NCBI RefSeq assembly: GCF_023638055.1 | Contig: NZ_JAKRVY010000001.1 | Coordinates: 565,815-629,814, forward strand | DNA: 64,000 nt | Source of the DNA: Natranaeroarchaeum aerophilus | GTDB lineage: Archaea > Halobacteriota > Halobacteria > Halobacteriales > Natronoarchaeaceae | Reading direction: 5' to 3' | Shown here: in pieces, positions 6,334 through 22,232 of the stretch | Position numbering within the stretch: position 1 is the first letter of the stretch | Layout: each line of letters opens with the position of its first letter | The notes under the pieces: generated by a model | What the model saw: the letters and a program-made list of their open reading frames with translations, nothing else | Databases searched by the model: none | What the model was told of the DNA's origin: nothing | Translations under genes and position numbers: made by a program

Positions 6334-7710
6334 ATGGACATAATTCGTGATGATTTAGGCCAACACAATAGCTATGTGTTTTCTCACGTCAAAGAACCGG
6401 AGGCTGAATCAACCTTGGGAGAGCTCCGTTTTGATAATCTCCCGGATCCCCTGGAAATTAATTCACCCCCATTCTGTACTATTGAACAAGTCGACAATCA
6501 AGAAGGGAAAATAACAATCAAGCTTGAGAAAGGCGGCAAAATGCGTGGGAATATATCTATACAAACAATTGGGAAGTCGTATCATATATCGCTTTTTTCG
6601 GCTCCAGCATATTTTGCAGTGATTTCTGCTATTGATGGACGTGGTGAACAAGCAATTGATGTACTCAACCGATATTACGGCGATTCTCGACTAGAGTGGG
6701 AATTTCGGACAGCTTGTAGAGCTACTCTTCAGTACGAGGCTTTTATAACAACTATGGATGAACTTGCAGAATATTCTGGACAGTTTGAGAATGTAATGTA
6801 TCGTTCGGCCACTGGTTATTTCGCAAAGCGCATTGATGATCGTGGTCCGCAAGGCATCAATTCGTATCAGATGCTAAAGGACCGTGTAGATCAGTGGAAC
6901 CGTGCCGAGAATCTAACACAGATCTCAATTAATGATATTCTCGCAGAGTATCTGGGCCGAGGTTGGATTCATAACTATCTCACAAATGAACGAGAGAGAT
7001 TACAAGATATAGGATTTAACCCAACTAGCTACGACCCATCTTGGAACACAATCGTTCCTGCAAGCTGGATTGCTCATCTTCTATTAACTGAAGGAGAAGA
7101 CGCTGCAAGAGACTATATCAAGAACCGTCTAGTTCCTCATGAGACATCTTACGGAAAGCTAAGCGAGAAGGCAAATAATGCCAATGAGGATCGATGGAAA
7201 TCCTGGGGGGATGTAGTAGCAGTTACAGGTAGTGAAGCTGAAGAGAACTTTCACTATGCCACTTACCAGTACCTGAGATTTGCTGGTACGGATTATCATG
7301 GAAATGCAAAAATCAATCCAATGCTGTACTCGGCGGCTACAACACTTACTGGCCCGCTGCCGGAATTCTTTCACCAAAGAATAAGATTTGAGGAGCAGAT
7401 TTCGTTAGGACATGAATACAGACGAGATAAAAATTGGCAAGCAGCACAAGAAGCGTTCCAAAATGCAAAAGTGATTGCTACTGGAGAGTCAGTTGGTAGT
7501 TATGACTTTGATCGGCGGAAAGTGGCGCAAGCAAAAAAGAGTCTTGGTCATATTGAGGCAACAGTCTTAGCTATAGACAATGATATCGAAGCTGCCATAG
7601 AGAAGTATCAGACAACTATATCAGATCTCCGACGGCTCGAAAATGATCCCGATGTCCGCGTTCAACAGTACATCGACTTCCTTGAACAAGAAAGAGATAG
7701 TATGCTGTAG
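6334..7710 (+). CDS. AT-rich gene of unknown function with repeat-like helical C-terminus
   Basis: 458 residues, coded with many A/T-ending codons (ATA, AAT, TTA), in sharp contrast to the GC-rich genes on either side, so recent transfer is likely. There is no signal peptide or membrane segment. The C-terminal 100 residues (HEYRRDKNWQAAQEAFQNAK, later AIEKYQTTISDLRRL) look like tetratricopeptide-type helical pairs. The N-terminal part has no motif I recognise. It stands upstream of the AbrB-methyltransferase-TBP operon on the same strand but is separated by 68 bases and differs in composition. A scaffold or sensor role is only a guess. Confidence 0.72.
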   Translation: MDIIRDDLGQHNSYVFSHVKEPEAESTLGELRFDNLPDPLEINSPPFCTIEQVDNQEGKITIKLEKGGKMRGNISIQTIGKSYHISLFSAPAYFAVISAIDGRGEQAIDVLNRYYGDSRLEWEFRTACRATLQYEAFITTMDELAEYSGQFENVMYRSATGYFAKRIDDRGPQGINSYQMLKDRVDQWNRAENLTQISINDILAEYLGRGWIHNYLTNERERLQDIGFNPTSYDPSWNTIVPASWIAHLLLTEGEDAARDYIKNRLVPHETSYGKLSEKANNANEDRWKSWGDVVAVTGSEAEENFHYATYQYLRFAGTDYHGNAKINPMLYSAATTLTGPLPEFFHQRIRFEEQISLGHEYRRDKNWQAAQEAFQNAKVIATGESVGSYDFDRRKVAQAKKSLGHIEATVLAIDNDIEAAIEKYQTTISDLRRLENDPDVRVQQYIDFLEQERDSML

Positions 7711-7778
7711 AAGTATCAGTTTCTGACTAGTCGAAGTAAAGACTATACCCCTCCAGTGATTCGTGAAGTCCATACCTG

Positions 7779-7970
7779 ATGACGCAGAAACAAGTCGGGC
7801 GAAACACCGGCAACTCCGGTCGGATCAACGTCTCAGGGTCCGAGTTGGACAAACTCGGAGTAGATATCGGCGACGCGGTCGACGTTGACGTCGTCGACGC
7901 CAAGACGATCGCCCACGCGCTCATCGACAGCAAAGAGTCCGAAGAGTTTCTCATCGTTACCCCTGCCTAA
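7779..7970 (+). CDS. Small AbrB/SpoVT-like protein, first gene of the methyltransferase-TBP-SNF2 operon
   Basis: 63 residues. GRINVSGSELDKLGVDIGDAVDVDVVD matches the pattern of swapped-hairpin AbrB domains (GRIxIP, then a short helix, then LGIxxGDxV), the DNA-binding fold of MazE- and AbrB-type regulators. It ends three bases before the methyltransferase ATG, so the two are cotranscribed and probably translationally linked. TATACC at 7745-7750 is a candidate promoter element. The likely job is transcriptional control of the operon or an antitoxin-like restraint on the nuclease; neither is shown by the sequence alone. The fold call rests on pattern only. Confidence 0.7.
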   Translation: MTQKQVGRNTGNSGRINVSGSELDKLGVDIGDAVDVDVVDAKTIAHALIDSKESEEFLIVTPA

Positions 7971-7973
7971 CGC

Positions 7974-10900
7974 ATGCAAACAGCACTCAACTATCGTACG
8001 AACCGCGATCTGTTTTCCAATCACTACCTCGACAAGCATCTCCCCGAGACCGAAGAGTGGGACGAGGTCAGCGACGACGAGCTCCAGGAGGCGTACGACG
8101 ACATCATGGACCTCTGGGAGCGGGAGAAGGATACAGCACCGAAGCGAAACGAGTCCCAGCTCGAAGAGAAGTTCATCCGGCCGATGTTCCGGAAGCTGGG
8201 GATTCCCTTCGAGGTCGAAGAAAGCACAAGTCGGACCCAGCGCCGACCCGACTACGGCTTTTTCGAGTCCGACGACGCAGCCCGTGACGCGTTCGAGCGC
8301 CGGGAGGAAGGCGGCGACTTCTACAAGAACTCGGTCGCCGTCGCCGACGCCAAGCGGTGGGGCCGCCCGCTCGACACCCGCGGGAGCGGTGAGCACGAGC
8401 GCGACTTCGAGAACCCGAGCTACCAGATTCACGTCTACCTGCAGGAGACGCCCGCCCGGTGGGCCGTCCTGACCGACGGGAAGAGGTGGCGGCTCTACTA
8501 CGGTCCGACGAGCCACCGGCTGGACTCCTACTACGAGATCGACTTGCCGACTGTGCTGGAGAAGGGCGATCTGGAGGACTTCAAGTACTTCTACCTCTTC
8601 TTCCGCCACGGCGCGTTTCTCGAAGACGCTGGCGGCGATAGCTTCCTCGACGACGTTTACGATGAGTCCAACGTCTTCGCCCAGGAGCTGGGGGAGGACC
8701 TCCAAGACAATATCTACGAGGCGATAAAAGTCCTTGCTGAGGGGTTTCTGCAGTATCCTGACAACGACCTCGACGAGGAGACCCTGGTCGAGCAGGACGT
8801 CCTCCCCGACAGCTACGCGGAGTTCGAGGAGGCCCGGCTCGATCTCATCCACGACTCCTCGCTCATCTACCTGTACCGGCTCATCTTCGTCCTGTACGCC
8901 GAGGCAGAGGGTCGTGAGCTACTCGACACCAATAACGAAATATACGAGCAGAGATACAGCCTGAACTCGCTCAAGCAGGAAGTCGCCGAAGAACTCGACA
9001 GCGCGGATCCCACGTATCGCGCCTGGCAGGACGACCTCCAGTCCAGCCTTGACGGGCTGTTTACCCTCATCGACCAAGGGAGCAAGTCCCGAGGTATTCC
9101 GGAGAAGGACCTCTACATTCCGGCTTACAACGGTGGGCTGTTCCGCACCGACCCCGACGAGGACGACAGCCGGGAGGCACAGTTCCTTGCCGACTATCAA
9201 GTCGGCGACGCCTATCTCGCGCGAGTCATTGAGCTGTTGACCCGGAGCCAGAATGCGAACGCTGAGGGGAAAATCTTCGTCGACTACTCCTCGCTAGATG
9301 TCCGTCACCTAGGCAGCATCTACGAGGGACTGCTTGAGTACCAGCTCAACGTCGCAAACGATCCGCTGGCGCTCGACGACGGCGAGTACGTGGAAGCCGA
9401 AGAGGGGGATGAGATTGTCGTCCACAAGGATGATGTGTACCTCACCACCGGGAGCGGGGAGCGAAAGGCAACCGGTTCGTACTACACTCCCGAGTATGTA
9501 GTCGAGTATATCGTCGATGAGACACTCGGGCCGGTCGTCGATGAGATCCGCGAGGATCTCGTTGGCTATGATTCATACAGTGAGGGCGGTTTTGCAACGG
9601 AATTCGCAGACCGCATCTTCGAGCTGAAAATTCTCGACCCGGCGATGGGCAGCGGTCACTTTCTCACAAGTGTGGTCGACTACCTTGCTCGCGAAATCAT
9701 CGACGCTCAAGAGAAGCAGGCCGCGCAGGAGGGCATCGAGACAGTCGATGAGCACCGGGACATCAACTGGGCCCGCCGGCAGGTCGCCCAGCGGTGCATC
9801 TACGGCGTGGACCTGAATCCGCTGGCGGTCGAACTGGCGAAGGTGTCGCTGTGGCTTCGGACGCTCGCGGCCGAGCAACCGCTGGCCTTCCTCGATCACC
9901 ATCTGAAGACGGGGAACTCGCTGGTAGGAAGTGATATTGAGACGGTACTGGACAACGGTGACTCCGACACCGGAACTGAGAAGGGTCAGTTGACGCTGCA
10001 AGAGTCGTTCGACCGAACCCGTCGGCAGGCACTCGAACATGTCACCGATCGGTTCGAGAACCTGCTCGCAATCGACAATGAGACACTGGACGATATCAAA
10101 GAGATGGAAGCAGTCTACGAGGATGTACGCGACGACCCACTATATCTGCATCTCATAGCCATGGCAAACGTCCACACCGCCGAACAGTTCGGCCTTGATA
10201 TTCCAGCCGACGCCTACGAGCGCATGGCTGAGGCCCTACGGGGCGATTCGTGGAATGAAGTCGAAGGTCTAGACTGGTACCGCTCTGCGCAGACAATGGC
10301 AGAGGATCAGCGATTCTTCCACTGGGAACTAGAGTTCCCAATTGCCTTTTATGAACAAGACGGCGAACGGAAAGAAAATAGTGGATTCGATGCAGTGATT
10401 GGTAATCCACCATATGGGGCTGAATTTTCGGATTCGCAGGAAACATATCTTCGAGATCGGTATCCTAATCAGGACTATCAATTAGATACCTACTTATTGT
10501 TTATAGAACAAGGATTAAATCTTAATCGTAGTAGGGGCAGATTCGGAATGATTGTGCCAAATACATGGCTTTCGAATCTGCAACTACAGAGCATTAGAAA
10601 ACTACTTTTTACAGAGAAGACAATCCGAAAGATCCGATACTATCAGAAGCCTGTCTTTGAGAATGTTACAGTTGATACACTTGTACTAATCGCTCAAAAC
10701 AAGACATTCAACAAAGATTCCAAAATAAAAATTGAGTTAGTTGATGACAAGTCAGAAGAGTATCAAATTCCACAGGAACGTTGGTCTGATCGTGGTGGAG
10801 AGGCGGTCAATATTTTTGAACGACCAGAAATTATTGGCTTAAGCGATAAAATTCGCAACCAGCCACGATTAGATAAGTTTTGTAAGGTGACCCAAGGTAC

Positions 10901-12089
10901 AAAACCGTTCCAAGTTGGAAAAGGAAGTCCAGAGCAGACGCAAGAAATTGTCAATAAAAAGCCATACGTATCAGATGAGCAAAAAACTGAACAGTTTCGG
11001 CCACTTCTAAGTGGAAAACATGTAAATCGTTACGTAATCAATTGGGATAGTAATTATTGGATTAAATTTGGGGATTGGTTAGCAGAGCCCCGCTATTCAG
11101 CTAATTATGATGTTTCTTCAAAAATCCTAATCCGACAGACTGCTGATTCACTTATTGCCACTCTTGATACAGATCAATTTATTGTCCGAGATAACCTCTA
11201 TACTATAACGTGTGATTGTGATTTTGATCACAAATATCTCTTAGGGCTTCTAAATTCAAAATTACTTAATTGGTATTATCAGCAGGTTGTTAATCCAGAG
11301 AAAGGTGAAGCATTAGCTCAAGTTAAACGTGGACATGTTTCTCAGCTGCCGATCTGTCCAAGAAGTTCTATAGATTCTGAAATCAATATCAGCACCTTTA
11401 GTTCAGATAGTTTGTTTGAGGAAAATAATATAGATCTATATCAAGGTATCTGTAATGGTGTTCAACAGTTGCTTGAAATCAAGGATCAGAGACAATCTCT
11501 CAATCTTTCTTTACTTGACTATCTCGGTAATTACAAAAAGGGCCCCTCTCTTCCAGATGCTGGTCTCTTTCAGCCGACCGATTCAACTATACTTGATGCT
11601 ACTACTACGGACTACGAGAAACTGCGTGTTGGAGATGTTATGACTGAACGCAGCGGTAACCGTGTCAGTATTCACGCGACAGCGCGTTACAAACCAATCG
11701 ATGAAGATGAATACGAAACCGATCGCTGGGGGTACACTGAGACAGAGCAATACGAGGCATTCACCCTCACTAACCTCACTGACGAGGAGGCTACTCTGAT
11801 TGAGGCTTTCGTTCCGGTTGCTGTTGAAAAGAGCGACGGCTTCGCAGGCTTCCGAGATAATGCGACGAAGAACATCTCTTTAACAGACCGGTTGAAAACG
11901 ATTACGCTACCAGATCCTAACGATGTCACAGACGATCTCCGTCGGTACACTGAGGTAAAAGAACAGGCCGAGGATCTGGACGAAAAAATAGAGAAAATCA
12001 ATTACTTCCTCAACGAAATTGTCTATCAAATTTATGACCTCACTGATGATGAAATTGAAATAATAGAATCGGCATTTCAAGATGACTGA
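7974..12089 (+). CDS. Eco57I-type DNA methyltransferase with N-terminal PD-(D/E)XK motif (type IIG/DrmMI-like)
   Basis: 1,371 residues. P92-D93 followed by D125-A-K127 in the N-terminal domain suggests a PD-(D/E)XK nuclease core. The adenine-methyltransferase motifs follow: motif I DPAMGSGH at 555-562 and motif IV N811-P-P-Y814, in the gamma order of Eco57I and PglX/DrmMI enzymes. The C-terminal third would be the target-recognition and helical region. Base composition changes inside the gene: GC-rich to about 10,330, AT-rich to about 11,600, then mixed again. This is the mark of an exchanged specificity domain. The small AbrB-like gene precedes it by three bases; a TBP paralogue follows after 57 bases. 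The pairing with an SNF2 ATPase recalls DISARM class 1 (drmMI/drmD), but drmA, drmB and drmC are absent. N6-adenine methylation and restriction are inferred from family. Confidence 0.88.
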   Translation: MQTALNYRTNRDLFSNHYLDKHLPETEEWDEVSDDELQEAYDDIMDLWEREKDTAPKRNESQLEEKFIRPMFRKLGIPFEVEESTSRTQRRPDYGFFESDDAARDAFERREEGGDFYKNSVAVADAKRWGRPLDTRGSGEHERDFENPSYQIHVYLQETPARWAVLTDGKRWRLYYGPTSHRLDSYYEIDLPTVLEKGDLEDFKYFYLFFRHGAFLEDAGGDSFLDDVYDESNVFAQELGEDLQDNIYEAIKVLAEGFLQYPDNDLDEETLVEQDVLPDSYAEFEEARLDLIHDSSLIYLYRLIFVLYAEAEGRELLDTNNEIYEQRYSLNSLKQEVAEELDSADPTYRAWQDDLQSSLDGLFTLIDQGSKSRGIPEKDLYIPAYNGGLFRTDPDEDDSREAQFLADYQVGDAYLARVIELLTRSQNANAEGKIFVDYSSLDVRHLGSIYEGLLEYQLNVANDPLALDDGEYVEAEEGDEIVVHKDDVYLTTGSGERKATGSYYTPEYVVEYIVDETLGPVVDEIREDLVGYDSYSEGGFATEFADRIFELKILDPAMGSGHFLTSVVDYLAREIIDAQEKQAAQEGIETVDEHRDINWARRQVAQRCIYGVDLNPLAVELAKVSLWLRTLAAEQPLAFLDHHLKTGNSLVGSDIETVLDNGDSDTGTEKGQLTLQESFDRTRRQALEHVTDRFENLLAIDNETLDDIKEMEAVYEDVRDDPLYLHLIAMANVHTAEQFGLDIPADAYERMAEALRGDSWNEVEGLDWYRSAQTMAEDQRFFHWELEFPIAFYEQDGERKENSGFDAVIGNPPYGAEFSDSQETYLRDRYPNQDYQLDTYLLFIEQGLNLNRSRGRFGMIVPNTWLSNLQLQSIRKLLFTEKTIRKIRYYQKPVFENVTVDTLVLIAQNKTFNKDSKIKIELVDDKSEEYQIPQERWSDRGGEAVNIFERPEIIGLSDKIRNQPRLDKFCKVTQGTKPFQVGKGSPEQTQEIVNKKPYVSDEQKTEQFRPLLSGKHVNRYVINWDSNYWIKFGDWLAEPRYSANYDVSSKILIRQTADSLIATLDTDQFIVRDNLYTITCDCDFDHKYLLGLLNSKLLNWYYQQVVNPEKGEALAQVKRGHVSQLPICPRSSIDSEINISTFSSDSLFEENNIDLYQGICNGVQQLLEIKDQRQSLNLSLLDYLGNYKKGPSLPDAGLFQPTDSTILDATTTDYEKLRVGDVMTERSGNRVSIHATARYKPIDEDEYETDRWGYTETEQYEAFTLTNLTDEEATLIEAFVPVAVEKSDGFAGFRDNATKNISLTDRLKTITLPDPNDVTDDLRRYTEVKEQAEDLDEKIEKINYFLNEIVYQIYDLTDDEIEIIESAFQDD

Positions 12090-12146
12090 GATAATGCTCA
12101 TCTACATTACACTTGTCCACCGGAGGGACAGAATCAACGAAATACT

Positions 12147-12677
12147 ATGAGTAGATTGACAATTGCTAGTATAGTCGCCACTGGAAAGATAGATAGAGAA
12201 TTCGATTTGGCGACTCTTGCGAATGATATAGATTGTTATTCGTACGACTATGAAGAAGGTCGCTCTGGGTTACATGTACAATTTTATGAAGAAGGCCCAA
12301 CAGCCACGATCTTCAGAAGTGGTTCCTGCAACATCCGAGGTGCATCCTCTGAGAAAGCATTATATGAAAACAAGTCGATGTTGGAGGATGCTATATCTAA
12401 TTTAGGTATTGAGGGAACGATATCTAGATTTCAGATTACCAATATCGTGTTTACTGCAGATTTAAACAAGTCCATTGATCTTAATGAACTTGCTGTCAAG
12501 CTGGGATTAGAAAATGTAGAGTATGAACCAGAGCAGTTTCCAGGATTAGTATACCGATTAGATCAAGGAGTTATCTTGATCTTCGCTTCTGGTAAGTTAG
12601 TTCTCACAGGATTTACGAATCGCAAAGATGCAAAACAGGCACTCAATACACTATCCAACAAATTGACCGATGTCTAA
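12147..12677 (+). CDS. TATA-binding-protein paralogue 1, defence-operon associated
   Basis: 176 residues with the two-fold TBP repeat. The C-terminal half is near canonical: VEYEPEQFPGLVYR with F131, and LIFASGK with F146, the two phenylalanines that kink TATA DNA. In the N-terminal half the matching stirrup reads YDYEEGRSGLHV, so the first phenylalanine is gone, while F56 in TIFRSG remains. The gene is AT-rich compared with the next one. Its last eight bases overlap the SNF2 gene. It is too diverged to be the cell's general TBP and sits inside an operon with a methyltransferase and an ATPase. The likely partner is the SNF2 ATPase; whether it binds TATA DNA asymmetrically, or binds TFB or RNA polymerase, is open. 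Confidence 0.85.
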   Translation: MSRLTIASIVATGKIDREFDLATLANDIDCYSYDYEEGRSGLHVQFYEEGPTATIFRSGSCNIRGASSEKALYENKSMLEDAISNLGIEGTISRFQITNIVFTADLNKSIDLNELAVKLGLENVEYEPEQFPGLVYRLDQGVILIFASGKLVLTGFTNRKDAKQALNTLSNKLTDV

Positions 12678-15621
12678 CTTCAAAGCGGGAGAACATATCA
12701 AGTTCGCTGGCGGGCGTGGAGAGATCACAAAAATCGAGGAACGGCCCAACGGCGGCCACCTCCTCCACGTCTACACCTCGGAGGGACAACTCCGCAAACT
12801 CCCTAGCGGCCTCCCCCATATCAAGAAACTCGATTCGCTCGTCGACCGCCTCGCAGCCGGCCAATCCGACGCCCCGCTCCAGTATGATCTTCGAGAGCGA
12901 GCGATTCGACTCGATCTCGCATACAAGTACGACCGCTTTCTCTCGCTCGCGAACAACCGCATCGAGATCGAACCGTACCAGGTCCAGGCCGCCTACGAGA
13001 TCCTGAACACCTACGACCACCGTTATTTGATCGGCGACGAGGTCGGTCTCGGGAAGACTATCGAGGCCGGGATTGTCATCGAGGAGCTCATCGCTCGTGG
13101 CCGTGCCGACCGCGTACTTATCGTCGCGCCAGCACCGCTTACCGTCCAGTGGCAAGCCGAAATGCGCGAGAAATTCGACCGGAACTTCGTCATCTACGAT
13201 CGCGAGACAGTCCAGACCTACCGCCAGTCTCACCCGAACCAGAACGTCTGGGAACAGGAGGACTTGATCATTACGTCGATCGACTTCGCGAAACAGACGA
13301 CGGATGACCCCGAGTCGGACAAGGTGTCCGTGCTCGACGCCCTGGGCAATCTCGAAGCGGAGTGGGACGTGGCGGTCTTCGACGAGGCTCATCACCTGAC
13401 TGCCCGACGATCGAGCGACGACTCGATGGAGCGCACCCAGCGCTACATGGTCGGGGAAGCTGTGGCGGATAACTCCGACGCGCTCCTGTTCCTGACCGGG
13501 ACGCCGCACAAGGGTAAGTCCGACCAGTTCTTCTTCCTGTTGAGCCTGCTCGATCCCTACCGGTTCAGCCACGAGTCACAGATCCATCCCGACAAGCTCG
13601 ACGACCTGCTGATCCGGCGGCTCAAGGACGATATGCACGACACCGACGGGACGCGGATGTTCCCCGAAAAGAACATCGAGGCACTGCCGGTCGAGATGTC
13701 CGACGCCGAGCGTCAGCTCTACGAGGACGTTACCGAGTACATCCGCGAGTACTACAACATGGCCCAGCAGGAGGAAAATCAGGCCGCTGGCTTTACGATG
13801 GTGATCTATCAGAAGCGGTTGGTCTCCAGCATATACGCCATCAGGAAATCGCTTGAGAACCGAATGCGGGCCATTCAGAACGACGCCGTCGCCGAGGACC
13901 TGCCGGACGATGTGCAAGAGCTCATCCCGCGGTACAGCACCGAGCCGGAAACGCTGACCGATGCGGAACGTCGAAGCGTCGAGGAAGCTCTCGAAACCGT
14001 CACGATCACACTGAACCGGTCGCAGATGCAGGCCGAACTGAACCGGGTCAAAGAGCTCTGGCAGCAAGCAAAGGCGATCGAGACCGACTCGAAGGCCCAG
14101 CTACTGCGTAACTTCGTCGATCGTGTCCTATCGGAGGATCCTGACGAGAAGATCCTCATCTTCACCGAGTACACGGACACGCTCGAATACCTGCGCGACC
14201 AGGTGCTCAACGACTACGATATCGCCCAAGTGTATGGCGACCTCGACCAGGACCGTCGGCGACAGGAGATGGAAGACTTCGAGGACGGTGCGAACATTAT
14301 GCTCGCGACCGACGCGGCACAGGAGGGCCTCAACCTCCAGTTCGCCCATATCATGGTCAACTACGACCTACCCTGGAACCCGACCCGTATCGATCAGCGG
14401 ATGGGGCGGCTCCACCGCTATGGGCAGGACAGGACCGTCGAGATCCGCAACCTGTTCTTTGACGATACTCGTGAAAGCGAAATCCTCAAGCTGCTCATCG
14501 AAAAGATGGATCAGATCGAATCTGACCTCGGAATGCGGTCGGACGTACTTGGTCGGGTACTAGAAGATGAAAACCTCGACGACACGATTATGGCCGCCGT
14601 CGCCGAGGAGCGTTCGACTGACGAGGTTGTTGCGGATATCGACGAAAAAATCGAGGAGCGAAAGGAAGCACTGGAGACCGTCGAGAACGACCTGCTCATC
14701 CGTGACCGGTTCGACCTCTCCGACGAGGACCAGGAGATCCTAGAGGTTATCGAGAAAAGCCGCCACGGAGAGGTAAGCGAGGAAGACATCGAGACGCTCG
14801 TCCGGGAGTTTTTCGATGTCTTCGGCGGAGCCATCAAAGGCGTACGTCCCGGCCCTTCTCGCGAGGAGGGCGACGTCTACCGGCTCGAAGTACCGAACCA
14901 CATTTCCGGCGATCAGGTCAGCGGCCACTACGAGCGAGCTACCTTCACCAGATCGGTCGCGATCGAGCACGATGATGTCGACTTTATTGCCCTTGACCAC
15001 CCACTGGTGCAGTCTATCATCGAGTTCTGCCTCGACTCAGACCATGTCCAGGGGCAGATCGTCGCCAAAACGACGACCAGTGACGCGGCACCGGGGATAC
15101 TGTTCAACTATCGCCTTGGCTATCTCTCGGGGGCGGGCGACGTAATCACTGAGAAGCTCGTTCCGCTCTATGCGCCGCTGAAGGGTGAGGTGACGAGAGA
15201 GGTACCGGAACTTATCGAAACGCTCCAAGAAGACGAAATAGACGCTATGACTCTAGAGAGGCTTGCGGCGGACGCTGAAGATCTGCACTCCGACGCGGAG
15301 GCAAAGGCATGGTACGAAGTCGAAGCCTTCGCTGATGAGGCCCGAGAAGAGCGGGAACGGGAAGTCGAGATCAAACGCGAGCACGCAGAGCGACATTTCG
15401 ACGAACAGATCGAAGAGTGGCAGGACCGACTGGATACGTATCGCCAGCGAAATGAAGAGGGTGCGGATATGAGTGCCCCGATCGGCAACGCCGAGCGCAA
15501 GCTGGAAGATCTCAGACGCGAAAAAAGACAAGAGCTACAGCAATTGGCTGAAGAAAAACACGTTACACCCGAACAGCCGGAGCTCGTGACTGCGGCGTTC
15601 GTTCTCCCAACAGATGAGTGA
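12670..15621 (+). CDS. SNF2-family ATPase, RapA/HepA- and DrmD-like
   Basis: 983 residues. Residues 1-60 look like a small SH3- or Tudor-like barrel. The helicase core follows: Walker A GLGKT at 126-130 in GDEVGLGKTIEAG, DEAHH at 238-242, LTGTPH at 275-280, and motif VI QRMGRLHRYGQ at 576-586. The segment before Walker A (DRLAAGQSD, then YQVQAAYE) resembles RapA/HepA, the RNA-polymerase-associated SNF2 branch that also includes DrmD of DISARM. Residues about 850-960 are charged and probably coiled-coil. The gene starts inside the first TBP gene and ends inside the second (8-base overlaps each). DNA translocation or protein remodelling is expected; the flanking TBPs suggest that these are its cargo or its DNA anchor. 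Confidence 0.9.
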   Translation: MSNFKAGEHIKFAGGRGEITKIEERPNGGHLLHVYTSEGQLRKLPSGLPHIKKLDSLVDRLAAGQSDAPLQYDLRERAIRLDLAYKYDRFLSLANNRIEIEPYQVQAAYEILNTYDHRYLIGDEVGLGKTIEAGIVIEELIARGRADRVLIVAPAPLTVQWQAEMREKFDRNFVIYDRETVQTYRQSHPNQNVWEQEDLIITSIDFAKQTTDDPESDKVSVLDALGNLEAEWDVAVFDEAHHLTARRSSDDSMERTQRYMVGEAVADNSDALLFLTGTPHKGKSDQFFFLLSLLDPYRFSHESQIHPDKLDDLLIRRLKDDMHDTDGTRMFPEKNIEALPVEMSDAERQLYEDVTEYIREYYNMAQQEENQAAGFTMVIYQKRLVSSIYAIRKSLENRMRAIQNDAVAEDLPDDVQELIPRYSTEPETLTDAERRSVEEALETVTITLNRSQMQAELNRVKELWQQAKAIETDSKAQLLRNFVDRVLSEDPDEKILIFTEYTDTLEYLRDQVLNDYDIAQVYGDLDQDRRRQEMEDFEDGANIMLATDAAQEGLNLQFAHIMVNYDLPWNPTRIDQRMGRLHRYGQDRTVEIRNLFFDDTRESEILKLLIEKMDQIESDLGMRSDVLGRVLEDENLDDTIMAAVAEERSTDEVVADIDEKIEERKEALETVENDLLIRDRFDLSDEDQEILEVIEKSRHGEVSEEDIETLVREFFDVFGGAIKGVRPGPSREEGDVYRLEVPNHISGDQVSGHYERATFTRSVAIEHDDVDFIALDHPLVQSIIEFCLDSDHVQGQIVAKTTTSDAAPGILFNYRLGYLSGAGDVITEKLVPLYAPLKGEVTREVPELIETLQEDEIDAMTLERLAADAEDLHSDAEAKAWYEVEAFADEAREEREREVEIKREHAERHFDEQIEEWQDRLDTYRQRNEEGADMSAPIGNAERKLEDLRREKRQELQQLAEEKHVTPEQPELVTAAFVLPTDE

Positions 15622-16165
15622 GCTACAGATCGTGAATATAGTCGGCGCAGGGGACCTGCAGCAAGAGCTGGACATCGAGCAGGTCGGAAGAGACATTGCA
15701 GTGCCGTACAGCGAATACGATCCATCGAACTATCACGGACTCTACCTCCGACCCGTTGAGGACGGACCGCTCATCACCGTATATCGAAGCGGAAAGTACA
15801 TCGTGACCGGGCCATCAAGTCTCGAAGAGCTCTACGGGACAAACGAGAAGTTCCTGACGAAATTGGGCGAACTGGACGGGGTTGGTGAGTTTGTGGACAC
15901 CGGATTTGCGGTCCAAAATATCGTCAGTACTGCTGAGCTAGATGAACATATAAACCTGAACGCCCTGTCTATCAGTCTCGGACTCGAAGCGACCGAATAC
16001 GAGCCTGAGCAGTTTCCCGGGCTGATTTATCGACCGGCGGAGTACCCTGTCGTCCTGCTGGTGTTTGCAACCGGGAAGGTCGTTATCACGGGGACAGCCG
16101 ATACCGAAGTCGCAAGAAAGGGGTTCGAGCATCTTCAGTCAGAGATGGACTTTGAATCGGCATGA
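15614..16165 (+). CDS. TATA-binding-protein paralogue 2, defence-operon associated
   Basis: 183 residues, about the usual haloarchaeal TBP length. The C-terminal half is canonical (TEYEPEQFPGLIYR with F134; LVFATGK with F151). In the N-terminal half both intercalating phenylalanines are tyrosines (Y40 in SNYHGL, Y57 in TVYRSGK). The gene begins eight bases before the end of the SNF2 gene. It is GC-rich, unlike TBP paralogue 1, so the two did not arise by a recent tandem duplication. The basis is the TBP repeat pattern, which is clear; the role in the operon is inferred. A general transcription role is unlikely given the location but is not excluded. Confidence 0.88.
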   Translation: MSELQIVNIVGAGDLQQELDIEQVGRDIAVPYSEYDPSNYHGLYLRPVEDGPLITVYRSGKYIVTGPSSLEELYGTNEKFLTKLGELDGVGEFVDTGFAVQNIVSTAELDEHINLNALSISLGLEATEYEPEQFPGLIYRPAEYPVVLLVFATGKVVITGTADTEVARKGFEHLQSEMDFESA

Positions 16166-16167
16166 GA

Positions 16168-17322
16168 TCATTTCTTACGCTCGATCTCGAAGGCCCGTTC
16201 CAGTAAATCGGCGATTTCAGAAAGCCCATTGACTGCTCGACGATCAACCACCATACTGACTCGATCAGTCTCTTTCGGGTGCTTCTTTCCAAGGGCAATA
16301 ACGATATCATCGTCAGGTGAAAATGTGGCAGAAAGCCATGCAGTAATGGTATCAGTTCCGGACAGCCATTCTGTAAAGATGTCGTGCCACGCCTCCTCCC
16401 TTTCAGGCGGTGACGGGGGCTCTGATTCGAACCCTTCGCGTTCGAGTCGGTCAGCAAACGCTCGGAGCCGGTCACAATCCTCAGGAGATACCTGAACGGT
16501 AACACTCTCGATATCCGCATTATATCCACTTTCGCGCTTGCCCAGTTGGAATGTGAGATCACCCCAAGGGCTGCGCGAAATCGTCGCCCAGGCTCGACCG
16601 CGCCGACGGAGTACTTGCTTTGCGATTCTAACCCACTCGTCGGATTTGTCGAACGATATCCAGAACTCACCGGGGAGCGGAATCTCACGTTCTACCGTCG
16701 GCGATTTCTCTTGGCGCAGCCATCGCACGATATCAGGATATCCTTCTAGTGCGGATCGATCGGGGAGGGCATACGGCCAGACGGTCAGGATACCGGATAG
16801 ATCGACATCGTAGTCCGAAAAGTCGTCTTCGTCCAGCCAGACAACACTATAGCCGCTAGCCAGATAGTGGTCCGTGACGGCCTCGATGTCCTTCCCCTCG
16901 TTGCGGTACTGGACCTCGACGGCGATACCCCTGCCATAGGGGTTCCGTGGCTCGTCAAACGTGAGGAGGACATCGGCGACACGGTCACCGATACCGGATT
17001 CGAGCTCCAGCGTAGCCTCGGAAAAATCATTGTCGAGTCGGGCATAGGCGATCGACTTCATTTTGAGGTGCTGGTCCGACTCGCCGGGGCATTTACCCGT
17101 CTTCCCGATTTCATCAAGGGTTGCCTGTCCGGTTGTCGTACTAGCTTCGACATCGGCTTCCTGCTTTTCGTGTCGAAAGTGGCGCGAGACGAAGCTATTC
17201 TCCCGTTCGTACGAGGAGATAACAGTCATCTGTTCGTCACAGACCGGACACACAACAGTCGCGTTGTCCTCTACTTGCGGTGGGATGACGCGGTCTCCCT
17301 CAAGAGTTCCGAGAAATGGCAT
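16168..17322 (-). CDS. CoiA-like nuclease with zinc finger
   Basis: 384 residues. The N-terminus has a probable zinc site, C25-P-V-C28 and H48-x-x-H51 (RHFRH), as in CoiA and related competence nucleases. A PD-(D/E)XK core follows: E81 in PGESDQH, D117 in RVADVLL and E136-V-Q138 in IAVEVQYR, then a helical strand-rich region to about 170. The C-terminal half is uncharacterised. The stop is two bases from that of the convergent TBP gene. It is the last gene of a minus-strand set exonuclease-helicase-nuclease, with 27 bases between it and the helicase. The nuclease assignment is good; the substrate is unknown. Confidence 0.8.
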   Translation of the reverse strand: MPFLGTLEGDRVIPPQVEDNATVVCPVCDEQMTVISSYERENSFVSRHFRHEKQEADVEASTTTGQATLDEIGKTGKCPGESDQHLKMKSIAYARLDNDFSEATLELESGIGDRVADVLLTFDEPRNPYGRGIAVEVQYRNEGKDIEAVTDHYLASGYSVVWLDEDDFSDYDVDLSGILTVWPYALPDRSALEGYPDIVRWLRQEKSPTVEREIPLPGEFWISFDKSDEWVRIAKQVLRRRGRAWATISRSPWGDLTFQLGKRESGYNADIESVTVQVSPEDCDRLRAFADRLEREGFESEPPSPPEREEAWHDIFTEWLSGTDTITAWLSATFSPDDDIVIALGKKHPKETDRVSMVVDRRAVNGLSEIADLLERAFEIERKK

Positions 17323-17349
17323 CTGTTATCGTATGATCCTGTGGAGTGG

Positions 17350-19596
17350 TCACGCTCCGAAATCGTCAAGGCTCGTCCTACGGCTATACCCACCGGTGGT
17401 ATCACCAGACGATGAAACGTCGGAGTCGTCTGTCGATTCGAGATACCGACTATCGACATCCCCATGCTCGATAAACGCCTGAATGTTACCGGCAGTTGCC
17501 GGTCCGATGCCGTCAACGCCGTCCCTCAGGACATCCTCGAACTGTGTCGAGTCGCCGATCGATTCGTAGAATGCAGTCAGTTTGGTCCAGAGCGTTCCGT
17601 CGGGGAGATCCCGTCCAGCTACAATATCAGAGCCTCTCAGGTATTCCTGTAGCGACCGAACTCGATACCGTCCAAGACCGGAGATATTTTCGACCAGCGG
17701 CACCTCCTCGTGTCGAATTCCCCGATCGACACGGAACGTCAGGCTATCGAACCACTCGGGGCGGCGAGCGTTCGGTGCAGCATCGATCAGATACTGGGTA
17801 GCCTCGATCGTCGACGAAAGACTGCTTGCTGTGCTGGATATGTACGCGGCGTCGACCTCCGTTCGATCTTCGATATCCCGGGTGTCGAGGTTGTTCATCC
17901 AGTACCAGCGGATTACCCCAGTGGTGATTCCATACTTATCCAGGGCAATACCATGTTCTTCGAGTTTTGCTTCGAGCTCTGAGGAACCACCTCGTGCACT
18001 GATTGAGTGGTCAAAGAGCCGTGTCGTTTTGTCAAGCATGGCAGTTCTGGTAACCTCGTCGTGGTCTGTCTCCTCGACCCACTGGTAGAACTCTTTGATC
18101 GCCAAGAGAGTGGCGCTAGCAAAGCTATTGAAGGCGAAATCAACTGCCCCGTCCCCCAGTGCAGTCGTCTGGAACTGACGTTTGGTATCGTGCTCGGAAA
18201 TGAAACCGTGCTCGATCAACCAGTCCGCTGTCTCCCGGAGTCGGGTATTCAGTCGTTCATCACGGGATCCATGTTCTCGTCCCCATGCCCCGAGTTCCGT
18301 GAGCTGGTCCCAGTAGAGCATCTCCTTGACGAACGCCTCTATCTCGTGAGGAGTATCCCATCCTGTCGCGACCAGCTCAAGAACGAGCCACTGGAACCGT
18401 TCTTGATTTTCGATGTGTGTTTCTACCCGTTCAAGTTCTCGCTGGGGCTCGAAAAAGCGCTGAGCAGTCTCATCGGGCTCGTCAGTAAGCGTATAGGCAA
18501 ATCCCTTGTCGTATCCATATCCCGGACGAGCGGCTCGTCCGATCCACTGAATGTACTCCCAGACTCCGACGTAATTCGGACCGCGTTGGATATCTGCGAC
18601 CAGCACGGTCTGGACAGGCGAGTCGAAACCATACGCGATCGTCGTAGTGGCAAAGAGACACTCGATCTCCCCCTCGTAGTAGAGATCCTCAATCCAGTTC
18701 GTGATGTGTTTCGGGAGGTCCGCATGATGAAACGCGACACCATTGTTCAGCGCATGAGCCAGTTTCTCGAACGTTTCAGTGAGCCGCCCATCGACCTTAT
18801 TTTCGAGCTCTACGTGGAAATTGCGGTCAGATGAGCCACGGAAGGCTCTGGTATCAGCAACTGCTTTCGCTCGTGATTCCGTCCACGGTTTTGCATAGTT
18901 GAAGACGAGGAAGGGTCCTTTGTCGCGGTGTGTCCTGACCGCATCGACGACCGCTTCCTTTGTTTCGTTGTTCGCGGTGTCTATGGCGTGCTCTTCGATC
19001 TCGATCTGTCGACCTTCCGGGCTGACGGTGACGTCAGCATCCATCCACTCGGCGAGCTCTTCGGGGTTGCCGACCGTCGCACTCATGGCGAAAATGTCGA
19101 TACCTTCGTACTTGGCAGCCGCAATCGACTTCTCGATCTCCGGGCCGCGAAAGCCGCCGTAAATTTCGTGGAAGTCATCGAGTACGATCAGATCCAGATT
19201 TCGAGCGTTCCCCGTATTTTGGAGAATCGCCCGATAAAACGAGTCAAAGGTTTTTACAGCAACGTCTGCCGTTCGATAGGCAGTCCGATCGGACTCGATC
19301 CGATACTGGTCTCCTCCCCATTCCCGCAGCGCATCGCGCTTGTCTCGCACCAGTTGTCTGGAAGGAACCAGATAGCCGACACGCCCACCGTCGTCCAAGA
19401 TCTTCTTTGTGACTGTCTCCGCGCAAAGCGTTTTGCCGTTCCCCGTCTCGGCCACAAGAAGATGGTTTCCGGGATCCAAAATGCCGTCCTGGAACGCCAG
19501 CCGTTGCGTTTCTTTGAGGCTCTCGTAGCCGTGGGCGGCCATCACTGTCTCGACGGTTTCCACGTCTTCAGGCGAAAGGTCACTTGGGACGGTCAT
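17350..19596 (-). CDS. Hel308/Ski2-like superfamily 2 DNA helicase
   Basis: 748 residues from the ATG at 19596, which shares ATGA with the stop of the exonuclease gene; a longer frame to 19623 is less likely. Motifs: Walker A AETGNGKT (about 49-56), DDFHE in place of DEAH/DExH (about 140-144), SATVGN (about 172-177), HHADLP, and QWIGRAARPGYG (motif VI, with the PG-G loop typical of the Hel308/Brr2 branch). The C-terminus carries a helix-hairpin-helix-like stretch (ISGLGRYRVRSLQEYL) and a second one (GVDGIGPATAGNI). It should be a 3'-5' DNA helicase by family. Direct coupling to an exonuclease and a CoiA-like nuclease suggests a DNA-degrading or processing machine rather than the housekeeping Hel308. 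Confidence 0.88.
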   Translation of the reverse strand: MTVPSDLSPEDVETVETVMAAHGYESLKETQRLAFQDGILDPGNHLLVAETGNGKTLCAETVTKKILDDGGRVGYLVPSRQLVRDKRDALREWGGDQYRIESDRTAYRTADVAVKTFDSFYRAILQNTGNARNLDLIVLDDFHEIYGGFRGPEIEKSIAAAKYEGIDIFAMSATVGNPEELAEWMDADVTVSPEGRQIEIEEHAIDTANNETKEAVVDAVRTHRDKGPFLVFNYAKPWTESRAKAVADTRAFRGSSDRNFHVELENKVDGRLTETFEKLAHALNNGVAFHHADLPKHITNWIEDLYYEGEIECLFATTTIAYGFDSPVQTVLVADIQRGPNYVGVWEYIQWIGRAARPGYGYDKGFAYTLTDEPDETAQRFFEPQRELERVETHIENQERFQWLVLELVATGWDTPHEIEAFVKEMLYWDQLTELGAWGREHGSRDERLNTRLRETADWLIEHGFISEHDTKRQFQTTALGDGAVDFAFNSFASATLLAIKEFYQWVEETDHDEVTRTAMLDKTTRLFDHSISARGGSSELEAKLEEHGIALDKYGITTGVIRWYWMNNLDTRDIEDRTEVDAAYISSTASSLSSTIEATQYLIDAAPNARRPEWFDSLTFRVDRGIRHEEVPLVENISGLGRYRVRSLQEYLRGSDIVAGRDLPDGTLWTKLTAFYESIGDSTQFEDVLRDGVDGIGPATAGNIQAFIEHGDVDSRYLESTDDSDVSSSGDTTGGYSRRTSLDDFGA

Positions 19597-20300
19597 ATTT
19601 CCACGCCATCGGCTGAAAGACATCGATGGAGCTCAATGAGAGGACGGACATCTTCAGTGGCATAGTCCACCAGGAGACGTTCGAGTTCTTTGAACGACTT
19701 GCGGTCATCGAGACCCGCATCCAGCCAGCTGACGTACTTCTCCCCCCAGACTTCACCGATGTGCTGTCCCACTACCTGCTCGTCAGTAATCTGGCTCTGT
19801 TCGATAATACCATCGTCGAGGCCGTAATCGGAGTAGCGGGTCGGGATGGTTTCGATCCCAAGCCGTTCACAAGCTTCCTCGAATTTGGGGAAGCCGTACC
19901 CATCTAGTTGCTCTTCCGCCAGGAGGGCAACATCAACGTGTTTGGAGAAAAGCTGATCCAGTTGCCGACTAGCGTCGACTGTCAACCCATGATTGTCGAC
20001 CTCAGTAGCCCACTCCCGTAGGTGGATCTCATCGAAGTCCTCTCCGTTATACGTAAGAACGTGCTCAGCAGGTCGCTGTTCACACCAATCGAGGACTCGA
20101 TCGAGAAGGGTAGCGGTGTGATCGATTTCCCAGTCTCCGTTCCGGAGGAAGACCTCAGTCTCGACCTCATCACCTGGCGATGATTGATACCCCGCTGCGA
20201 CGGCGACAAGCTCGAAATAATCGGTGTTCTTGAACTCCTCCCGATTGTCAGGTGAGTTGAAGGGACTCGCGGTCTCGATATCGATAGCGAGGGTTGCCAT
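19593..20300 (-). CDS. DEDDy-type 3'-5' exonuclease
   Basis: 235 residues from the ATG at 20300, where the protein begins MATLAIDIETAS. The earlier open frame reads as low-quality sequence and is left out. The active-site set of the RNase H-fold DEDDy exonucleases is complete: D7-I-E9 (Exo I), N85-x3-F-D90 (Exo II, YNGEDFD) and Y213-x3-D217 (Exo III, YATED). It resembles the stand-alone PolB-type exonuclease domains of archaea. The stop overlaps the helicase start (ATGA), so the two are translated together. Likely role: removing 3' ends produced by the helicase and nuclease partners. Confidence 0.85.
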   Translation of the reverse strand: MATLAIDIETASPFNSPDNREEFKNTDYFELVAVAAGYQSSPGDEVETEVFLRNGDWEIDHTATLLDRVLDWCEQRPAEHVLTYNGEDFDEIHLREWATEVDNHGLTVDASRQLDQLFSKHVDVALLAEEQLDGYGFPKFEEACERLGIETIPTRYSDYGLDDGIIEQSQITDEQVVGQHIGEVWGEKYVSWLDAGLDDRKSFKELERLLVDYATEDVRPLIELHRCLSADGVEI

Positions 20301-20603
20301 GGATACTGGCAATTCACAGCCATCTAACATATTGTTTTGGAAAACCACGGTCGAACCACCGTTTCGAGTGCTTCGACTGGAACGTTGCGGTGCGGGTGCG
20401 GGGTATGTTTTTTCGCCAGTGCCCTTAGGCACACTTCCTAAGGGGATCCTCCCACTGAGTGGGAAGATCTCGACCGCAGAGCTCCCGGCTACAGGTAAAA
20501 ATACCACTCCTATCGAAACAGGGGTCGGAAAATACCCCCTCGCGGGACGAAATAGACCCGAAAATAGACCTACAGAATAGTGTTGCCACTCGCCAGTCAG
20601 GCG
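20301..20603. promoter_or_regulatory. Gene-free leader of the exonuclease-helicase-nuclease operon, with inverted repeats
   Basis: 303 bases without a gene. It holds CCCTTAGG (20422-20429) and CCTAAGGG (20437-20444), a perfect eight-base inverted repeat with a seven-base loop, followed directly by the palindrome CCCACTGAGTGGG (20451-20463). Both lie about 120-160 bases upstream of the exonuclease ATG. They may be operators, or a terminator for the 542-residue gene that ends at 20604 on the same strand. Confidence 0.5.
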
Positions 20604-22232
20604 TTACCGGGTGAGCGATCGCACCCGTCCGCAGCGGCGATCACCGTCGGCGTTTAGCCACTCGACGCTCGCCTCCAGGAGGTCGACGATGTCGCGACCG
20701 TCTTTCATCCAGGCCTCTCTCGCTTCCTGGAGGACCTCTTCGACACGAGGGTACGATGAAGCTTTGAACTCGCCGAGCCGCGTGTCGATCCGGACCGTCC
20801 GGTTATCGTGGTCGTCGACATCGAACGACACCGCGTACTTCTGCATCCACTTCTGGAACGCGCTCGACGCCGACTGGCGAGCGTTTACGTTCATTAGCTT
20901 CGCCGCTCGGTCAGCTGCGTTTTCGATCCGGTGCTCGGCGCTCTCGACGATCGCGGCGATCTCCTGCTCTATCTTCCGGCTGGTGAACTCGACGGCGGCG
21001 TTGTCGTTCCGGACAAGCCCGTCAAGTCGATCCAGGCATCGGTACAACGTCGAGATACCTCTGTCAGCGTTGTTCGCTAGTTCCTGCGGGTGCTGGCCGT
21101 CTCCGTCAGCGACCAGCGCCTCCAGAAAATCGATATCCGCCTCTGTCATATCTCGCAGTGTCGTGATCAGGAGCGCGTCCTGCTTGGCTTCGATCTCCGG
21201 TGTCGGGTCCGCGAAGAACTCGATATCTTCCTCAGCTGGGGCGGCATCGAAATGATCGTCGGGAACAAACGTAGTTCCGCCCGCGCCGATGGGGATATCC
21301 GACCATCGGAGCGTGTTGATCAGCGTCTCGTCGATTTCCCGACGGAGCTCGTTACGATCGCTCCATGCGAACGACTGACCTTTGTTCAGCGACTTCTTGA
21401 GCAGAACCCCGATCTTCGGATGGTACAGCGCGTCCTCGTCGTCGCCGTGGACGTACTCGGGATGGTAGTGTTTCAGTTGCTTGCCCCGCGAGTGCATCGG
21501 GATCAGCTCCCGGGCATCCGGTTTGGGCAAAACGAGACGGTGGTTGTAGCCCACAATATCCTTGTTCGGCCCGCTGTTGCTCGGTTTGTAGACGATATCC
21601 GAGCCCTCCTTCTGTGCGAGCAGCTCGAAGATCCGACGCATGGCACCGGTCGAGCGGACGTACTTCTCGGCCATTGACCGGTGAACGCGCACATAGCGCT
21701 CGTAGGTGGTGATGTTACTCGTCGGATGAATCGCGGTGAAGTAATTCGAATTGATACCCATCTCGGCTTCCTCAGCCAGCGCGTTCAGGGCCTTTCGGAA
21801 CAGTACCGGGTAGGTGTCCGGTTCCAGATTACTCCCCGATATTTTGACGTTTGTCGCCTCGTTCGGGAGGTCGTCGCTATCGCAGGGCGACGTGATCTCA
21901 TCGCCCGTGTCGTAATGTTCCATCCCGGCGAAGCGGGGGCGAATGTGGAAGTTAGCCTTCCTCTCGCCGCGACCATACGCACTGACGCGGAACTCTTTCA
22001 GACGTTCGTTTACGTCATCTTCCGGCCGTGGGGCGATACCGCTCTTCTGATATTTGAGGTTGACAATCCACTTCTCACCGCCGATTTCCGTGGCTATCTC
22101 TCCCGAATATCCGTCGAATCCGCGGTGCAACAACATCGACACCGCCCAGTAGGGACTGAGCCCACGGTCGAAGAAGTTCAGATTTCCTTCGAGCTCGTGG
22201 GGCGCGGTCGCGACGTGACTCACGCGAGACAC
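20604..22232 (-). CDS. Haloarchaeal winged-helix protein of unknown function
   Basis: 542 residues starting MSRVSHVATAPHELEGN. No catalytic motif is visible. Residues about 365-425 look like a winged helix (HPQELANNADRGISTLYRCLDRLDGLVR), and the following 60 residues are a long charged helix. The N-terminal half is rich in aromatic and His residues. As I recall, proteins of this general kind occur next to tRNA genes and mobile regions in haloarchaea. Here it is the gene nearest tRNA-Ala and ends the accessory island. It could be an element-encoded regulator or replication protein. No function is assigned. Confidence 0.78.
   Translation of the reverse strand: MSRVSHVATAPHELEGNLNFFDRGLSPYWAVSMLLHRGFDGYSGEIATEIGGEKWIVNLKYQKSGIAPRPEDDVNERLKEFRVSAYGRGERKANFHIRPRFAGMEHYDTGDEITSPCDSDDLPNEATNVKISGSNLEPDTYPVLFRKALNALAEEAEMGINSNYFTAIHPTSNITTYERYVRVHRSMAEKYVRSTGAMRRIFELLAQKEGSDIVYKPSNSGPNKDIVGYNHRLVLPKPDARELIPMHSRGKQLKHYHPEYVHGDDEDALYHPKIGVLLKKSLNKGQSFAWSDRNELRREIDETLINTLRWSDIPIGAGGTTFVPDDHFDAAPAEEDIEFFADPTPEIEAKQDALLITTLRDMTEADIDFLEALVADGDGQHPQELANNADRGISTLYRCLDRLDGLVRNDNAAVEFTSRKIEQEIAAIVESAEHRIENAADRAAKLMNVNARQSASSAFQKWMQKYAVSFDVDDHDNRTVRIDTRLGEFKASSYPRVEEVLQEAREAWMKDGRDIVDLLEASVEWLNADGDRRCGRVRSLTR

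What the first reader, a model, noticed from the sequence alone, without database searches (positions are those of the whole stretch)
7779..16165. Candidate new system: AbrB-like, Eco57I methyltransferase, TBP, SNF2 ATPase, TBP
Seen: five co-directional genes, with 8-base overlaps joining TBP1, SNF2 and TBP2. Two TATA-binding-protein paralogues bracket a RapA/HepA-like SNF2 ATPase behind a type IIG/DrmMI-like methyltransferase. Known: SNF2 plus DrmMI is part of DISARM class 1, but drmA, drmB and drmC are missing; in eukaryotes the SNF2 ATPase Mot1 removes TBP from DNA, and RapA acts on RNA polymerase. Inference: the TBPs may target the ATPase to promoters or bent DNA, or sense foreign transcription, giving a restriction system coupled to transcription factors.
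Basis: partly seen in the sequence, partly recalled or inferred. Interest (0 to 1): 0.92.

Follow-up and report, generated by a model that had tools for sequence, protein, structure and literature searches.

The report
Restriction cassette carrying half-defective TATA-binding proteins
This stretch of a salt-loving archaeon's genome holds a mobile DNA restriction-modification cassette that carries two degenerate copies of the basic transcription factor TBP; related degenerate TBPs sit beside restriction, BREX and DISARM systems across haloarchaea, which gives a probable job to a family (TbpC) previously suspected of being dead.

Summary
In detail: five co-directional genes at 7779-16165 (small AbrB/MazE-like protein, 1371-aa type IIG/DrmMI-like methyltransferase, TBP1, SNF2 ATPase, TBP2), with 8-nt overlaps on both sides of SNF2. 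It is not accidental: 21 of 31 haloarchaeal loci with a close SNF2 relative (74-81% identity) have a TBP directly beside it. It is not DISARM, ARMADA or BREX: no DrmABC, YprA, PglZ or BrxC lies nearby. But the TBPs are not specific partners of SNF2. In 23 genomes, TBPs that had lost DNA-intercalating phenylalanines lay beside restriction, BREX, DISARM or type IIG genes at 14 of 16 loci, against 0 of 22 canonical TBP loci and 0 of 20 random windows on the same replicons. Two haloviruses carry the same pairing. TBP2 fits the published TbpC family, suspected of being non-functional; dN/dS of 0.05-0.15 argues against that. The TFB-binding stirrup is kept and gene placement varies, so a dedicated transcription factor for the cassette is the likeliest role, rather than a Mot1-like ATPase partner. 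That mechanism is untested. The cassette is a new variant of a known kind; the general TBP-restriction link was not found in the literature searched.

The parts
7728..7747 (+). Conserved palindromic operator-like element TAGTCGAAGTAAAGACTATA, covering the TATA/BRE position about 32 nt upstream of the first gene
   Evidence: Aligned in 19 of 20 upstream regions of the cassette, including those without TBP; one match within 3 mismatches in the whole 3.29-Mb genome, 0.01 expected in the window
7779..7970 (+). 63-aa AbrB/MazE-like protein, probable autoregulator (tentative)
   Evidence: Conserved first gene of the cassette (60-86% identity, 22 loci); only weak MazE-type matches
7974..12089 (+). 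1371-aa type IIG-like restriction-methyltransferase (PADLOC DrmMI / REase_MTase_IIG): N-terminal PD-(D/E)XK-like residues D93, D125, K127; MTase motifs DPAMGSGHF and NPPY; variable TaqI_C specificity region
   Evidence: Pfam/PADLOC; catalytic residues invariant in 13 homologues, specificity region hypervariable
12147..12677 (+). TBP1: divergent TBP, N-half first Phe lost (RFFF pattern), C-half intact
   Evidence: Pfam TBP 4e-38; Phe quartet; isolated long branch
12670..15621 (+). 983-aa SNF2/RapA-like ATPase (BrxHII/DrmD/HmaA-type) with intact Walker A, DEAH and motif VI
   Evidence: PADLOC BrxHII 556 bits, HmaA 421, DrmD 400; nearest solved relative RapA; motifs read in the translation
15614..16165 (+). 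TBP2, TbpC-type: N-half Phe pair replaced by Tyr (YYFF), C-half Phe pair and EYEPEQFPG stirrup kept
   Evidence: clade with the NRC-1 pNRC100 TBP, support 100/99; AF2 pLDDT 88, TM about 0.85 to solved TBPs

Best explanation
A mobile haloarchaeal restriction cassette. A type IIG-like enzyme (nuclease + N6-adenine methyltransferase + variable target-recognition region) methylates host sites and cuts unmethylated foreign DNA, helped by a DISARM/BREX-type SNF2 translocase. The small AbrB/MazE-like protein probably represses the operon at a palindrome covering its TATA box. The two TBPs belong to a restriction-associated class of degenerate TBPs (TbpC family and relatives) in which usually one lobe has lost its DNA-intercalating phenylalanines while the C-terminal, TFB-binding stirrup is kept. 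The most likely role of the TBPs is as dedicated transcription factors that, with TFB, set expression of their own restriction cassette, rather than as DNA-targeting subunits of the ATPase. Shown here: gene content, conservation, Phe loss, purifying selection on TBP2, statistical association with restriction loci, the conserved operator-like palindrome. Inferred: nuclease and methylase activity, repression by the AbrB-like protein, TFB binding, regulation by the TBPs.
For: Cassette conserved in 31 loci and on plasmids of H. salinarum, Hrr. lacusprofundi and Halorientalis. In genomes sampled without reference to this locus, degenerate TBPs lie within about 4 genes of RM/BREX/DISARM genes at 14/16 loci vs 0/22 canonical (Fisher p=1.2e-8; 2.9e-8 with the window left out) and vs 0/20 random windows on the same replicons; Pfam N6_Mtase 10, HSDR_N 8, Eco57I 8, Methylase_S 7 among 82 neighbours vs none listed among 104. 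All orientations (divergent, convergent, upstream, downstream) fit a trans-acting regulator. C-half EYEPEQFPG invariant across 22 TBPs from several kinds of restriction system, a halovirus and the canonical gene, and TBP fold kept. TBP2 dN/dS 0.05-0.15. Haloviruses HRTV-9 and HJTV-2 pair a degenerate TBP with a type IIG enzyme or an N4-MTase, without SNF2.
Against: No expression, binding or restriction data. The cassette already has a candidate repressor, and its palindrome is kept where TBP is absent, so TBP is not needed for that site; 10/31 close relatives lack an adjacent TBP. A type IIG enzyme needs a 'methylate first' controller less than a two-protein system does. TBP2-SNF2 co-inheritance (Mantel r=0.77) and the usual 4-nt overlap also fit a protein complex. 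A few mirror-type TBPs lost the C-half Phe pair instead.
Confidence: 0.5

Rival explanations
1. The TBPs are working subunits: TBP2 (and TBP1) bind the SNF2 ATPase or the MTase and direct it to promoters or bent DNA, or let it sense foreign transcription.
For: 4-8-nt overlaps with SNF2 in most loci, strong co-divergence with SNF2 (r=0.77), RapA-like ATPase class, two TBPs in several operons, some with complementary lobe losses (L054, L062).
Against: Degenerate TBPs accompany systems without such an ATPase (halovirus type IIG, L145, L170) and type I RM, in any orientation; lost repeatedly while the MTase-SNF2 pair persists; no HEAT-type TBP-binding region.
Confidence: 0.22
2. The TBPs are interference factors: with one dead lobe they compete with normal TBP or sequester TFB, to quiet viral (or host) transcription during infection, a transcriptional arm of the defence.
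For: Single-lobe Phe loss with the TFB stirrup kept; haloviruses themselves encode TBPs.
Against: The two halovirus TBPs of this type come with the virus's own restriction or modification genes, so they are unlikely to be anti-viral; no direct evidence.
Confidence: 0.13
3. Passenger or decaying TBP paralogues carried along on plasmids and islands where restriction genes are also common.
For: Frequent loss; PMC4230888 considered TbpC possibly non-functional; several fragments exist (L146, L177, L152).
Against: dN/dS 0.05-0.15 with both lobes equally constrained; canonical TBPs show no such link; 0/20 random windows on the same replicons.
Confidence: 0.08

Closest known systems
DISARM class 1 (DrmD + DrmMI + DrmABC)
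   Same: MTase and SNF2 are nearest to haloarchaeal DrmMI (about 50-63% identity) and DrmD (49-61%)
   Different: No DrmA, DrmB or DrmC; adds an AbrB-like gene and TBPs
ARMADA (PMC12458937)
   Same: Pairs a BrxHII/RapA-like helicase with a PglX-like MTase
   Different: Defining YprA helicase absent here
BREX (BrxHII, PglX)
   Same: SNF2 best PADLOC model is BrxHII
   Different: No PglZ, BrxC or BrxA
Type IIG restriction enzymes (MmeI/Eco57I type)
   Same: Nuclease-like N-terminus, N6 MTase and TaqI_C-type specificity region in one chain
   Different: Embedded with a SNF2 ATPase and TBPs
Haloarchaeal TbpC family (PMC4230888; tbpC knockout in PMC2121645)
   Same: TBP2 has lost the N-lobe Phe pair, kept the C-lobe pair, and forms a clade with the NRC-1 pNRC100 TBP
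   Different: Known only as an orphan TBP, possibly non-functional; its link with restriction loci was not found in the papers searched
TOTE / TALON conflict systems (cited in PMC12458937)
   Same: Predicted defence operons that contain TBPs
   Different: TALON is bacterial (mainly Chloroflexota) and both pair TBP with TPR-OB proteins; none is conserved here
Metazoan TRF2/TLF (from memory)
   Same: TBP relative without intercalating Phe that still uses TFIIB/TFIIA
   Different: Eukaryotic, genome-wide role; analogy only

Membership tests
DISARM class 1 | DrmMI-type MTase with DrmD-type SNF2 helicase | tested here: inconclusive
   PADLOC DrmMI 325 bits and DrmD 400 bits, but the best SNF2 model is BrxHII (556) and NCBIfam DrmD is 451 against a cut-off of 610
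DISARM class 1 | DrmA, DrmB, DrmC present | tested here: not met
   Absent in clade-A loci, present in clade-B loci; own-genome MZB/DUF1998 only on C5 and C11
[quoted passage not shown]
   No MZB/DUF1998 protein on the window's contig
BREX | PglZ and BrxC with PglX | tested here: not met
   No PglZ in the own genome; BREX genes only in clade-C loci
Type IIG restriction-modification enzyme | Nuclease, N6-MTase and specificity domain in one chain | tested here: met
   REase_MTase_IIG model matches residues 9-822; Pfam Eco57I + TaqI_C, weak MmeI_N; D93/D125/K127, DPAMGSGHF and NPPY invariant. By sequence only
Type IIG restriction-modification enzyme | Methylates and cleaves DNA | not testable with these tools
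   Needs an assay or a methylome
TbpC family | N-lobe Phe pair lost, C-lobe pair kept | tested here: met
   TBP2 YYFF; TBP1 RFFF meets it only in part
TbpC family | Groups with Halobacterium TbpC in a tree | tested here: met
   TBP2 with L104 (the only YYFF TBP seen on pNRC100) in a 20-row clade, 100/99; TBP1 does not. That L104 is TbpC rests on the Phe pattern and gene order, not on a locus tag
TOTE/TALON | TPR-OB(CSD) protein beside TBP and effector | tested here: not met
   No such conserved gene in clade-A loci; a single non-conserved 458-aa gene at 6334-7710 has no Pfam match

The most novel reading that the evidence does not exclude
Archaeal restriction, BREX and DISARM systems use degenerate one-lobed TBPs, sometimes as complementary pairs (one with only the N-lobe Phe pair, one with only the C-lobe pair), as integral parts that couple restriction to the TBP/TFB transcription machinery, e.g. 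sensing or gating on foreign promoter activity.
Probability: 0.2. Interest if true: 0.92.

Novelty: new variant of a known kind. Interest (0 to 1): 0.78.

Why it matters
Haloarchaea carry many extra TBPs whose purpose has long been debated; TbpC was even proposed to be non-functional (PMC4230888). Linking this class of TBPs to restriction-type defence gives them a testable job, offers a reason why tbpC deletion in NRC-1 shows no phenotype (its partner MTase gene is split by a transposon), and shows a general transcription factor recruited repeatedly into mobile defence systems and into haloviruses. It also gives a sequence marker (loss of a Phe pair in one lobe) for finding archaeal defence loci.

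Tried and rejected
Specific SNF2-TBP partnership as the general rule: weakened when TBPs were found beside restriction genes without this ATPase. DISARM, ARMADA and BREX membership: rejected for missing core genes. TBP as binder of the conserved palindrome: disfavoured, as the palindrome stays where TBP is lost. Pseudogene/passenger TBP: disfavoured by dN/dS and controls. The AF2 model of the MTase N-terminus (mean pLDDT 38) was too poor to use; the nuclease claim rests on motifs. The genome-contig scan returned only 6 loci. A look for an island boundary at tRNA-Ala found no clear att repeat. AbrB family assignment stayed below threshold. Caveats: the seed set for the locus calls was partly drawn from the same loci, but the independent Pfam counts agree; of the canonical neighbours' Pfam families only the 25 commonest are listed, though the PADLOC list (7 families, none of the RM type) is complete. 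One search used 23 canonical loci by a miscount; one search gives the corrected 22. In 12 genomes chosen because they carry the cassette, some degenerate TBPs had no clear restriction neighbour (L142, L148; fragments L146, L152).
Full report
OBSERVATION. The five genes, their coordinates, direction and the two 8-nt overlaps are as described. Domain searches confirm two full TBPs (E=4e-38, 6e-40), an Eco57I/TaqI_C/N6 methyltransferase and an SNF2 ATPase. PADLOC ranks the MTase as DrmMI (325 bits) and type IIG REase-MTase, and the ATPase as BrxHII (556), HmaA (421) and DrmD (400). The nearest solved relative of the ATPase is RapA. The AbrB label is plausible but sub-threshold.

CONSERVATION. A search of 394 haloarchaeal genomes splits SNF2 relatives into clade A (74-81% identity; this cassette), clade B (49-61%; neighbours DrmA, DrmB, PLD protein, C5 MTase: DISARM class 1) and clade C (33-38%; neighbours PglZ, BrxC, BrxA: BREX). 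Among 394 genomes drawn from the phylum, the strong matches (E <= 1e-140) were all within the same order. In clade A the shared core is AbrB-like, MTase, SNF2 and TBP; nothing else is constant, although a GmrSD-type gene (PADLOC HEC-05) recurs in 10 loci. A TBP is directly adjacent to SNF2 in 21 of 31 clade-A loci; five, including the window, also have an upstream TBP, and one (L035, on a short contig) has only the upstream one. NRC-1 pNRC100 carries the cassette with its MTase gene split by ISH27-2, followed by SNF2 and TBP; Hrr. lacusprofundi pHLAC01 and Halorientalis marina carry intact versions.

TBP ANATOMY. TBP has two lobes, each with a pair of DNA-intercalating Phe. Canonical haloarchaeal TBPs show F,F/F,F. 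The clade-A downstream TBPs show Y,Y/F,F almost without exception. This is the pattern reported for TbpC (PMC4230888), whose authors left open whether it is dead or specialised. The SNF2-linked TBP of pNRC100 is the only one with this pattern among the pNRC100 TBPs examined, so I take it to be TbpC (inferred). The window TBP2 and the NRC-1 protein fall in one 20-row clade (100/99) apart from the canonical clade. Eleven close pairs give TBP2 dN/dS 0.05-0.15 with both lobes equally constrained, so it is not decaying. The model of TBP2 is a complete two-lobed saddle (pLDDT 88; TM about 0.85 to solved TBPs, including 1ais, P. woesei TBP-TFB). The C-lobe stirrup EYEPEQFPG is invariant in 22 aligned TBPs; by established TBP-TFIIB structures (from memory) it carries the TFB contacts. 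A mirror class, seen upstream in L054 and L062 and in the BREX locus L147, keeps the N-lobe Phe pair and loses the C-lobe pair. The window TBP1 is R,F/F,F, on its own long branch.

THE GENERAL RULE. Annotated plasmids showed TbpC-type TBPs inside BREX-5, a BrxL-type BREX, a DUF1156-DUF499 locus, an MTase-helicase pair and an MTase-SNF2 locus. To test this without selecting for the cassette, all TBPs of 22 further genomes plus the own one were listed and their surroundings fetched. Non-canonical TBPs lay within about four genes of RM, BREX or DISARM genes at 14 of 16 loci; canonical TBPs at 0 of 22 (Fisher p=1.2e-8, or 2.9e-8 with the window left out). Pfam on +-3 neighbours, window excluded: N6_Mtase 10, HSDR_N 8, Eco57I 8, Methylase_S 7, SWI2_SNF2 6 of 82 proteins, versus none of these in the list for 104 neighbours of canonical TBPs; PADLOC 340 versus 7 families. 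Random windows on the same replicons: 0 of 20. In 12 further genomes chosen because they carry the cassette, most other intact degenerate TBPs again sat in type I, type IIG or BREX loci, with exceptions (L142, L148). Haloviruses HRTV-9 (TBP directly after a type IIG enzyme) and HJTV-2 (TBP near an N4 MTase and an Eco29kI-type enzyme) carry the same pairing, whereas seven viral TBPs with four Phe do not.

HOW IT WORKS. MTase: PD-(D/E)XK-like D93, D125, K127, motif I and NPPY invariant in 13 homologues, with a hypervariable specificity region, as expected of a self-contained restriction-modification enzyme under selection for new targets; the structure model of this region failed. SNF2: intact ATPase motifs. 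A palindrome TAGTCT-N6-AGACTA covering the TATA position upstream of the AbrB gene is conserved in 19 of 20 loci, also where TBP is absent, and occurs once in the genome: most likely the AbrB-like protein's operator. The TBPs: association with many kinds of adenine-methyltransferase systems, free orientation, the conserved TFB stirrup and repeated gain and loss favour a dedicated transcription factor for the cassette. Overlap and co-divergence with SNF2 (r=0.77) keep the subunit model alive. I put about 0.5 on the regulator model and 0.22 on the subunit model.

NOVELTY. Searches for TBP with restriction-modification, BREX, DISARM or haloarchaeal defence found no prior report of this link. The nearest precedents are TOTE and TALON operons with TBPs (PMC12458937). 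Only open-licence papers were searched. The cassette is a new variant of a known kind; the TBP-restriction association is the more important result.

Noticed in passing
window 7728-7747 and upstream of the AbrB-like gene in L039-L061: Very strongly conserved palindrome over the TATA position, unique in the genome; operator of the cassette, independent of TBP presence.
   Followed up: partly
L054 8079-8627 and 11590-12147; L062 2821-3369 and 6310-6858; L147 6559-7107 and 11119-11667: Pairs of TBPs in one defence locus in which one has lost the C-lobe Phe pair; in L054 and L062 the other has lost the N-lobe pair, so the two are complementary half-TBPs.
   Followed up: partly
G000 C7:49790-50317 (L153 6781-7344): A fourth, highly divergent TBP of the own genome lies between a 1197-aa MTase-like gene and a 1270-aa helicase-like gene.
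   Followed up: partly
L165 5001-5540 and L166 4974-5588 (haloviruses HRTV-9, HJTV-2): Haloviruses carry a degenerate TBP beside their own type IIG enzyme or MTase/restriction genes.
   Followed up: yes
L069, L074, L079, L080 (DISARM class 1 loci): Haloarchaeal DrmMI keeps the same PD-(D/E)XK-like D, D, K residues as the window enzyme, so it may itself be a nuclease-methylase.
   Followed up: no
window 16168-22232 (-): CoiA-like gene, DEAD helicase, exonuclease-like gene and DUF7845 gene next to the cassette; the CoiA-like and DUF7845 families recur near other defence loci (L041, L044, L046, L063).
   Followed up: no
L104 4426-10004 (pNRC100): The cassette's MTase gene in Halobacterium NRC-1 is split by ISH27-2, so tbpC knockouts there may not reveal TbpC function.
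   Followed up: partly
L146 6545-6916, L177 6712-7083: 123-aa N-lobe-only TBP genes in two genomes with the same neighbours; a remnant or a genuine single-lobe TBP.
   Followed up: no
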